Source: Thiobacillus sp. (GTDB lineage: Bacteria; Pseudomonadota; Gammaproteobacteria; Burkholderiales; Thiobacillaceae). Taken from it: DNA of 64,000 nucleotides. The translations under genes and the position numbers were made by a program. Each line of letters starts with the position of its first letter. Position 1 is the stretch's first letter. The stretch is from positions 1-64,000 of the forward strand of contig WGNC01000007.1 of assembly GCA_016124745.1 (NCBI GenBank), written 5' to 3'. Of this stretch, positions 62,581-63,004 are shown piece by piece. A model generated the notes under the pieces. The model did no database searches and was not told where the DNA came from. It saw only the letters and a program-made list of their open reading frames with translations.

Positions 62581-62871
62581 CTACTTGTGGGCAATCGGCT
62601 TTTCGGTGAACAGGTAGTCCCTGAGCTCTTTCGAGAAGCTTGGATCCTTGCGGCGAATCCACTCCAGCACCATGGACGCGTGCTCCTTCTCTTCGTCACG
62701 ATTGTGCTCAAGAATCGCTTTCAGTTCATGGTCTTTGCATGCATCAGCGCGCTGGTTATACCAGTCAACGGCCTCCAGCTCTTCCATCAATGAAACGATG
62801 GCGCGGTGCATATCGCGCGTTTCATCAGAAAGCTCTTCCATGGGTTCGTGGTAACCGACACTCGACATCAA
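62581..62871 (-). CDS. encapsulated-ferritin-like (EncFtn) family protein
   Basis: ETRDMHRAIVSLMEELEAVDWYNQRADACKDHELKAILEHNRDEEKEHASMVLEWIRRKDPSFSKELRDYLF; recalled EncFtn ferroxidase residues present. Confidence 0.88.
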   Translation of the reverse strand: MMSSVGYHEPMEELSDETRDMHRAIVSLMEELEAVDWYNQRADACKDHELKAILEHNRDEEKEHASMVLEWIRRKDPSFSKELRDYLFTEKPIAHK

Positions 62872-63004
62872 TTTCTCCTTCGGGTTGAAACAAAAAGCAG
62901 GGCTGCCCCCATTTGCTGCACGTGCACGCCCTGAAAACGAGCCTTAACTGGAGTGTACCTGCTCGAAGCAAGGCGCTGTCAGCGGGGTATGGCCGCGCAT
63001 AAGA

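What the first reader, a model, noticed from the sequence alone, without database searches (positions are those of the whole stretch)
62581..62871. EncFtn-type ferritin without an obvious encapsulin-targeting tail or neighbouring encapsulin gene
The 96-aa protein aligns from memory with the Rhodospirillum rubrum encapsulated ferritin; MEELEAVDWY and NRDEEKEH are present with the expected spacing. Known EncFtn proteins carry a C-terminal targeting peptide into encapsulin shells; here the protein ends FTEKPIAHK soon after the helical core, and no encapsulin gene is seen. It may act free or use a different partner. The neighbourhood beyond 64000 is not visible.
Basis: partly seen in the sequence, partly recalled or inferred. 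Interest (0 to 1): 0.6.

Follow-up and report, generated by a model that had tools for sequence, protein, structure and literature searches.

The report
Shell-free encapsulin-type ferritin (s-FLP)
A small iron-oxidising protein of the kind usually packed into a protein shell here has neither the packing tag nor any detectable shell gene in its genome; it belongs to a known but little-studied shell-free class, which this survey finds to be the common form among its bacterial relatives.

Summary
Window 62581-62868 (minus strand, ATG at 62868, 95 aa) encodes an EncFtn-type ferritin (PF22277 149.7 bits, TIGR04535 138 bits) with all ferroxidase residues and no targeting peptide. No Family 1 or Family 2 encapsulin was found in the 3.35 Mb, 97.8% complete genome, whose genus is Thiobacillus. 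It is a member of a known class, the 's-FLP' (type structure 3k6c, NE0167 of Nitrosomonas europaea: same length, 74/95 identical, same ending). A 2024 review left open whether s-FLPs are encapsulated and suggested the LFTxKPIAH end as a possible targeting peptide. The survey here argues against that. In 369 genomes of the class, 98 carry full-length EncFtn and 79 of these have no encapsulin. All 19 genes with a targeting peptide lie beside a shell gene; none of the 81 short-tailed genes does. Among 80 further named s-FLP genomes, none has a shell. The core is conserved, so the protein is probably an active free ferroxidase. What it does without a shell is unknown. A lead: in 20 genomes the s-FLP gene lies in the aerobic rubrerythrin-RFO-DUF3501 operon. 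The Thiobacillus genome has that operon 33.5 kb away, without an EncFtn in it. Nothing here was tested biochemically.

The parts
62581..62868 (-). CDS of the tail-less EncFtn-type ferritin (s-FLP), 95 aa, ATG start
   Evidence: AlphaFold model with closest PDB fold 3k6c
62875..62880 (-). ribosome-binding site AAGGAG, 6 nt before the ATG
   Evidence: read from the sequence
62758..62784 (-). codons for E29-Y37: E29/E32 entry site, E30 ferroxidase ligand, W36/Y37 (= Rru E31, E34, E32, W38, Y39)
   Evidence: residue mapping from the alignment; E29, E30, E32 and Y37 invariant in 178/178 short homologues
62680..62706 (-). codons for H55-H63: ferroxidase ligands E60 and H63, putative exit site H55/E59/E62 (= Rru E62, H65, H57/E61/E64)
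   Evidence: functional residues as in PMC5012862
62581..62607 (-). C-terminal tail TEKPIAHK and stop: no targeting-peptide motif; the class's conserved end K-P-I-A-H

Best explanation
The gene encodes a cytosolic, shell-free EncFtn-type ferroxidase of the s-FLP class. By homology it forms the open D5 decamer seen for EncFtn, with a di-iron ferroxidase centre at each dimer interface that oxidises Fe(II) with O2 or H2O2. It is not a cargo: it has no targeting peptide, the genome has no detectable Family 1 or Family 2 shell, and the class as a whole is consistently found away from shells. A free EncFtn ring cannot store mineral iron, so the likeliest role is removal of free Fe(II) and peroxide, with Fe(III) passed on or bound transiently rather than stored. 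Shown here: sequence, fold match, conserved catalytic residues, absence of shell and targeting peptide, and the class-wide pattern. Inferred: decamer, activity, physiological role.
For: Families and structure. No shell in the window's genome. Class-wide pattern: 98 of 369 genomes have full-length EncFtn, 79 of them without a Family 1 shell. All 19 genes with a targeting-peptide tail (27-47 residues after F87) are next to a shell gene and a 20th gene is fused to shell sequence; none of the 81 genes with tails of 16 residues or fewer is next to one. Shells in 0 of 80 further named s-FLP genomes and 0 of 11 short-tailed genomes drawn from the phylum. Genomes with both kinds (G014, G196, G247) keep the short copy away from the shell. 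E29, E30, E32, Y37, N56, E59, E60, E62, E69 and W70 are invariant in 178 of 178 short homologues and H63 in 177, which argues for retained catalysis. The short class has its own signature (I71, N38, C44, A93-H94). EncFtn cannot mineralise iron without a shell: PMC5012862, PMC7762939.
Against: No activity or oligomer data exist for this protein. The apo crystal structure of NE0167 (3k6c) is reported as a decamer but unpublished (PMC11202242). A shell too divergent for PF04454 and PF19307, or lying in the missing 2% of this genome, cannot be fully excluded for this genome alone. Families 3 and 4 were not searched. The 'release rather than store' step has no direct support.
Confidence: 0.72

Rival explanations
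1. The s-FLP is a working part of the aerobic rubrerythrin system (rubrerythrin, Fe-S oxidoreductase RFO, DUF3501): an iron- or peroxide-handling enzyme, perhaps fed electrons by RFO, rather than a storage protein.
For: In 20 class genomes the short EncFtn and DUF3501 genes are neighbours on the same strand (coordinates); several loci show rubrerythrin-RFO-EncFtn-DUF3501 (L144, L146, L148, L162, L175, L180). No targeting-peptide copy lies beside DUF3501. DUF3501 occurs in 59 of 83 genomes with a short EncFtn against 101 of 286 others (Fisher p 8.5e-9, not corrected for kinship). The Thiobacillus genome has the full operon at contig C25 96381-98882. The preferred oxidant of EncFtn is unknown (PMC7762939).
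Against: The window gene is not in that operon, and its neighbours (DUF1223, GST) are not shared with relatives. 24 of 83 genomes with a short EncFtn lack DUF3501. TP-only genomes also often have DUF3501 (8 of 15), so the co-occurrence is not specific to the short form; only the physical linkage is. No interaction data.
Confidence: 0.28
2. It is cargo of an undetected or divergent shell, with the LFTxKPIAH end acting as a cryptic targeting peptide (the possibility raised in PMC11202242).
For: The A93-H94 end is conserved (154/178 and 153/178). The review lists LFTD(E/N)KPIAHE as a putative targeting peptide.
Against: The same YLFT..PI segment is present, before the linker, in proteins that carry a separate targeting peptide (YLFTEGPIT...), so it belongs to the core. 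No Family 1 shell in 79 class genomes, 80 named genomes and 11 phylum genomes; a Family 2 shell in only 2 of the 79. KPIAH does not fit the LxI/L-type consensus.
Confidence: 0.05
3. It hands iron to the genome's bacterioferritin, acting as an accessory ferroxidase.
For: The genome has one clear PF00210 ferritin, a 149-aa Bfr-like protein next to a carboxysome-shell-type gene.
Against: Not adjacent; no known EncFtn-Bfr contact; co-occurrence across genomes was not tested.
Confidence: 0.12
4. A decaying former cargo gene that lost its tail.
For: Absence of tail and shell.
Against: The same length and end occur from Nitrosomonas to Colwellia and Nitrospirales, the catalytic residues are invariant, and the class has its own conserved signature.
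Confidence: 0.01

Closest known systems
s-FLP class, NE0167 of Nitrosomonas europaea (PDB 3k6c, UniProt Q82XT5)
   Same: 95 aa, 74/95 identical, same start and end of the chain, same fold, no targeting peptide
   Different: No difference in kind found; W36 is L in NE0167
EncFtn of Rhodospirillum rubrum Rru_A0973 (5da5) and Haliangium ochraceum (5n5f), FLP-TP class
   Same: Core 61/92 identical to Rru, same ferroxidase and entry residues, same fold
   Different: Those carry a disordered linker and a GSLK-type targeting peptide and go with an encapsulin; here both are absent
Fusion-FLP (Pyrococcus furiosus 5n5e/2e0z)
   Same: Homologous ferritin-like domain
   Different: Not fused to a shell protein
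Aerobic-type rubrerythrin-RFO-DUF3501 system (PMC5114695)
   Same: Also a ferritin-like di-iron system; shares an operon with s-FLP in some genomes
   Different: A different family; in the window's genome the operon is 33.5 kb away and contains no EncFtn

Membership tests
EncFtn-like ferritins (PF22277 / TIGR04535) | Profile match above the curated cut-off over the whole domain | tested here: met
   PF22277 149.7 bits (cut-off 27), TIGR04535 138 bits (cut-off 125)
EncFtn-like ferritins (PF22277 / TIGR04535) | Ferroxidase ligands equivalent to Rru E32, E62, H65, with Y39 and entry site E31/E34 | tested here: met
   E30, E60, H63, Y37, E29, E32
EncFtn-like ferritins (PF22277 / TIGR04535) | Two long antiparallel helices and a short third helix | tested here: met
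   AlphaFold helices 15-43, 47-74, 80-86; best PDB match 3k6c
EncFtn-like ferritins (PF22277 / TIGR04535) | Annular D5 decamer and ferroxidase activity | not testable with these tools
   Needs purified protein
Encapsulated EncFtn (FLP-TP) | C-terminal targeting peptide | tested here: not met
   8-residue tail TEKPIAHK after F87, no GSL-type motif
Encapsulated EncFtn (FLP-TP) | Encapsulin shell gene, usually adjacent | tested here: not met
   No PF04454 or PF19307 in the genome
s-FLP class (3k6c type) | About 95 aa, no long disordered C-terminus, no apparent targeting peptide, LFTxKPIAHx end | tested here: met

The most novel reading that the evidence does not exclude
Shell-free EncFtn is the prevailing form in this class of bacteria and works not in iron storage but as an iron- or peroxide-detoxifying enzyme linked to the aerobic rubrerythrin-RFO-DUF3501 system, in which its gene is often embedded.
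Probability: 0.28. Interest if true: 0.62.

Novelty: new member of a known kind. Interest (0 to 1): 0.4.

Why it matters
EncFtn is described as needing its shell to store iron, and the NCBI family model it matches names it 'encapsulin-associated'. A large set of genomes carrying a conserved, apparently active EncFtn with no shell means that the name misleads, and that a ferroxidase with no storage compartment needs another function. The rubrerythrin-operon linkage makes that question testable. The window gene itself is an ordinary member of the class.

Tried and rejected
Frameshift hiding a longer C-terminus: rejected, because homologues end at the same place. Shell beyond the window's edge: rejected by the whole-genome search. 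Family 2 shell: none in the genome. Conserved neighbour of the window gene: none; its neighbours have no counterparts next to other s-FLP genes except distant P-type ATPases in two loci. Fur or FNR box upstream: no convincing enrichment over shuffled upstream sequence (FNR-like sites with up to 2 mismatches in 26 of 172 against 12-15 in shuffles, not followed up). Promoter scan: nothing; one weak terminator-like hairpin upstream at 62898-62911, no better than chance. Tree: with 86 columns most forks are unresolved. Targeting-peptide forms fall in a few places (5 label changes), so a single gain or loss of the tail was neither shown nor excluded. Plasmids: only 7 records, and one of the best is a partial hit on an Aquincola plasmid next to Tn7-like genes.

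Full report
What is there. The minus strand of 62581-62868 encodes a 95-aa protein, MSSVGYHEPMEELSDETRDMHRAIVSLMEELEAVDWYNQRADACKDHELKAILEHNRDEEKEHASMVLEWIRRKDPSFSKELRDYLFTEKPIAHK. The protein matches PF22277 EncFtn-like and TIGR04535 above their cut-offs. Its nearest solved relative is NE0167 of Nitrosomonas europaea (3k6c), 74/95 identical over the whole length and with the same end. An AlphaFold model (mean pLDDT 82.8) gives the two long helices and one short helix, with 3k6c as best fold match, followed by the Haliangium and R. rubrum EncFtn structures.

Known class. A 2024 review (PMC11202242) divides encapsulated ferritin-like proteins into types and calls the 3k6c type 's-FLP': short, with no apparent targeting peptide. 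It says they were first classed as non-encapsulated (its reference 57, Giessen and Silver 2017; [quoted passage not shown] The window protein is a member of this class.

No shell in this genome. The window's genome (48 contigs, 3.35 Mb, 97.8% complete) has no Family 1 encapsulin (PF04454) and no Family 2 encapsulin (PF19307), and carries only this EncFtn gene. Same-genus genomes match named Thiobacillus records at 100% identity over several kb (L220=L036, L222=L021, L224=L027, L225=L030), so the genus is Thiobacillus.

Survey. Of 369 genomes of the class, 98 have a full-length EncFtn and 19 have a Family 1 encapsulin; all 19 are among the 98, leaving 79 genomes with EncFtn and no shell. The tails of 102 EncFtn genes of this set were read. 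81 have tails of 16 residues or fewer after F87, typically LFTxKPIAHx, and none has a targeting-peptide motif. 19 have tails of 27-47 residues ending in motifs such as GSLGIGSLK, LTVGSL or TIGSLK; every one lies next to an encapsulin gene. One (L169) has a 35-residue K/A/P-rich tail, no motif and no Family 1 shell. One (L208) is fused to shell sequence. In three genomes with both kinds (G014, G196, G247) the short gene is away from the shell. As further samples, 80 named s-FLP genomes have no Family 1 shell, nor do 11 short-tailed genomes drawn from the phylum. Within the genus, 14 other genomes with s-FLP were tested and only G441 has a shell, next to a second EncFtn-type gene. The samples overlap in a few species and genomes are related, so the counts are not independent events, but the pattern has no exception among the genes read.

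The putative targeting peptide. The YLFTExPI segment also occurs in targeting-peptide-bearing proteins (YLFTEGPIT in R. rubrum and class members), where it precedes the linker and the true targeting peptide. It therefore belongs to the core. With no shell present, a targeting role for KPIAH is unlikely. The end is nevertheless conserved in the short class (A93 154/178, H94 153/178), along with I71, N38 and C44, which differ in the targeting-peptide class. The short form is thus a distinct conserved form and not a random truncation.

Activity. E29, E30, E32, Y37, N56, E59, E60, E62, E69 and W70 are invariant in 178 of 178 short homologues, and H55 and H63 are kept in 177. The protein should be an active ferroxidase. 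R. rubrum EncFtn oxidises iron but cannot mineralise it without the shell (PMC5012862), and a review states that EncFtn need encapsulin cages for this (PMC7762939). A shell-free EncFtn therefore poses a real functional question.

Possible partner. In 20 class genomes the short EncFtn and DUF3501 genes are neighbours on the same strand (positions), and in several the order is rubrerythrin (PF02915), CCG Fe-S oxidoreductase (PF02754), EncFtn, DUF3501 (PF12007). The rubrerythrin-RFO-DUF3501 cluster is known (PMC5114695). I found no paper in the library that links EncFtn with it (one paper holds both DUF3501 and 'encapsul'; it was not read), but subscription journals are largely missing. DUF3501 is commoner in genomes with a short EncFtn (59/83 against 101/286), but also fairly common in targeting-peptide-only genomes (8/15), so only the physical linkage is specific. 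The Thiobacillus genome has the full operon on the same contig at 96381-98882, with RFO and DUF3501 directly adjacent and no EncFtn between them. The window gene is solitary: DUF1223 and GST genes flank it and are not shared with relatives.

Verdict. What is added is strong genomic evidence that this class is shell-free, and a lead on its function.

Noticed in passing
L144, L146, L148, L162, L175, L180 (and 14 further genomes by coordinates): Short EncFtn gene inside the rubrerythrin-RFO-DUF3501 operon, or next to DUF3501, same strand.
   Followed up: partly
L234:3381-5883 (G000:C25 96381-98882): Complete aerobic rubrerythrin-RFO-DUF3501 operon of the window's genome, 33.5 kb from the window gene, without EncFtn in it.
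   Followed up: partly
L235:386-1236 (G000:C19): Bacterioferritin-like gene directly after a carboxysome-shell-type (BMC) gene (the latter named from its sequence, not scanned); the genome's only clear PF00210 ferritin.
   Followed up: no
L208 (G196:C227, minus strand): EncFtn domain in frame with only the second half of an encapsulin (profile positions 116-252) in a bacterium; probably a decayed or deleted fusion. Fusion systems are reported only from archaea (PMC8346489).
   Followed up: partly
L169 (G074:C20): EncFtn with a 35-residue lysine/alanine/proline-rich tail, no targeting motif, no Family 1 shell; the genome has a Family 2 shell elsewhere.
   Followed up: no
L138-L183 (e.g. L145, L163, L183): Several short EncFtns end in histidine-rich tails (LEKHHHD, LEQEHHGG, TGHHHDH), possibly metal-binding.
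   Followed up: no
L251-L254: Divergent EncFtn-like proteins (83-86 bits) in one genus of the phylum; two of four genomes have an encapsulin elsewhere, tails not read.
   Followed up: no
L271 (NZ_CP097638.1 37865-44050): Partial s-FLP match (residues 1-62, 82% identical), unannotated, beside Tn7-like transposition genes on an Aquincola plasmid.
   Followed up: no
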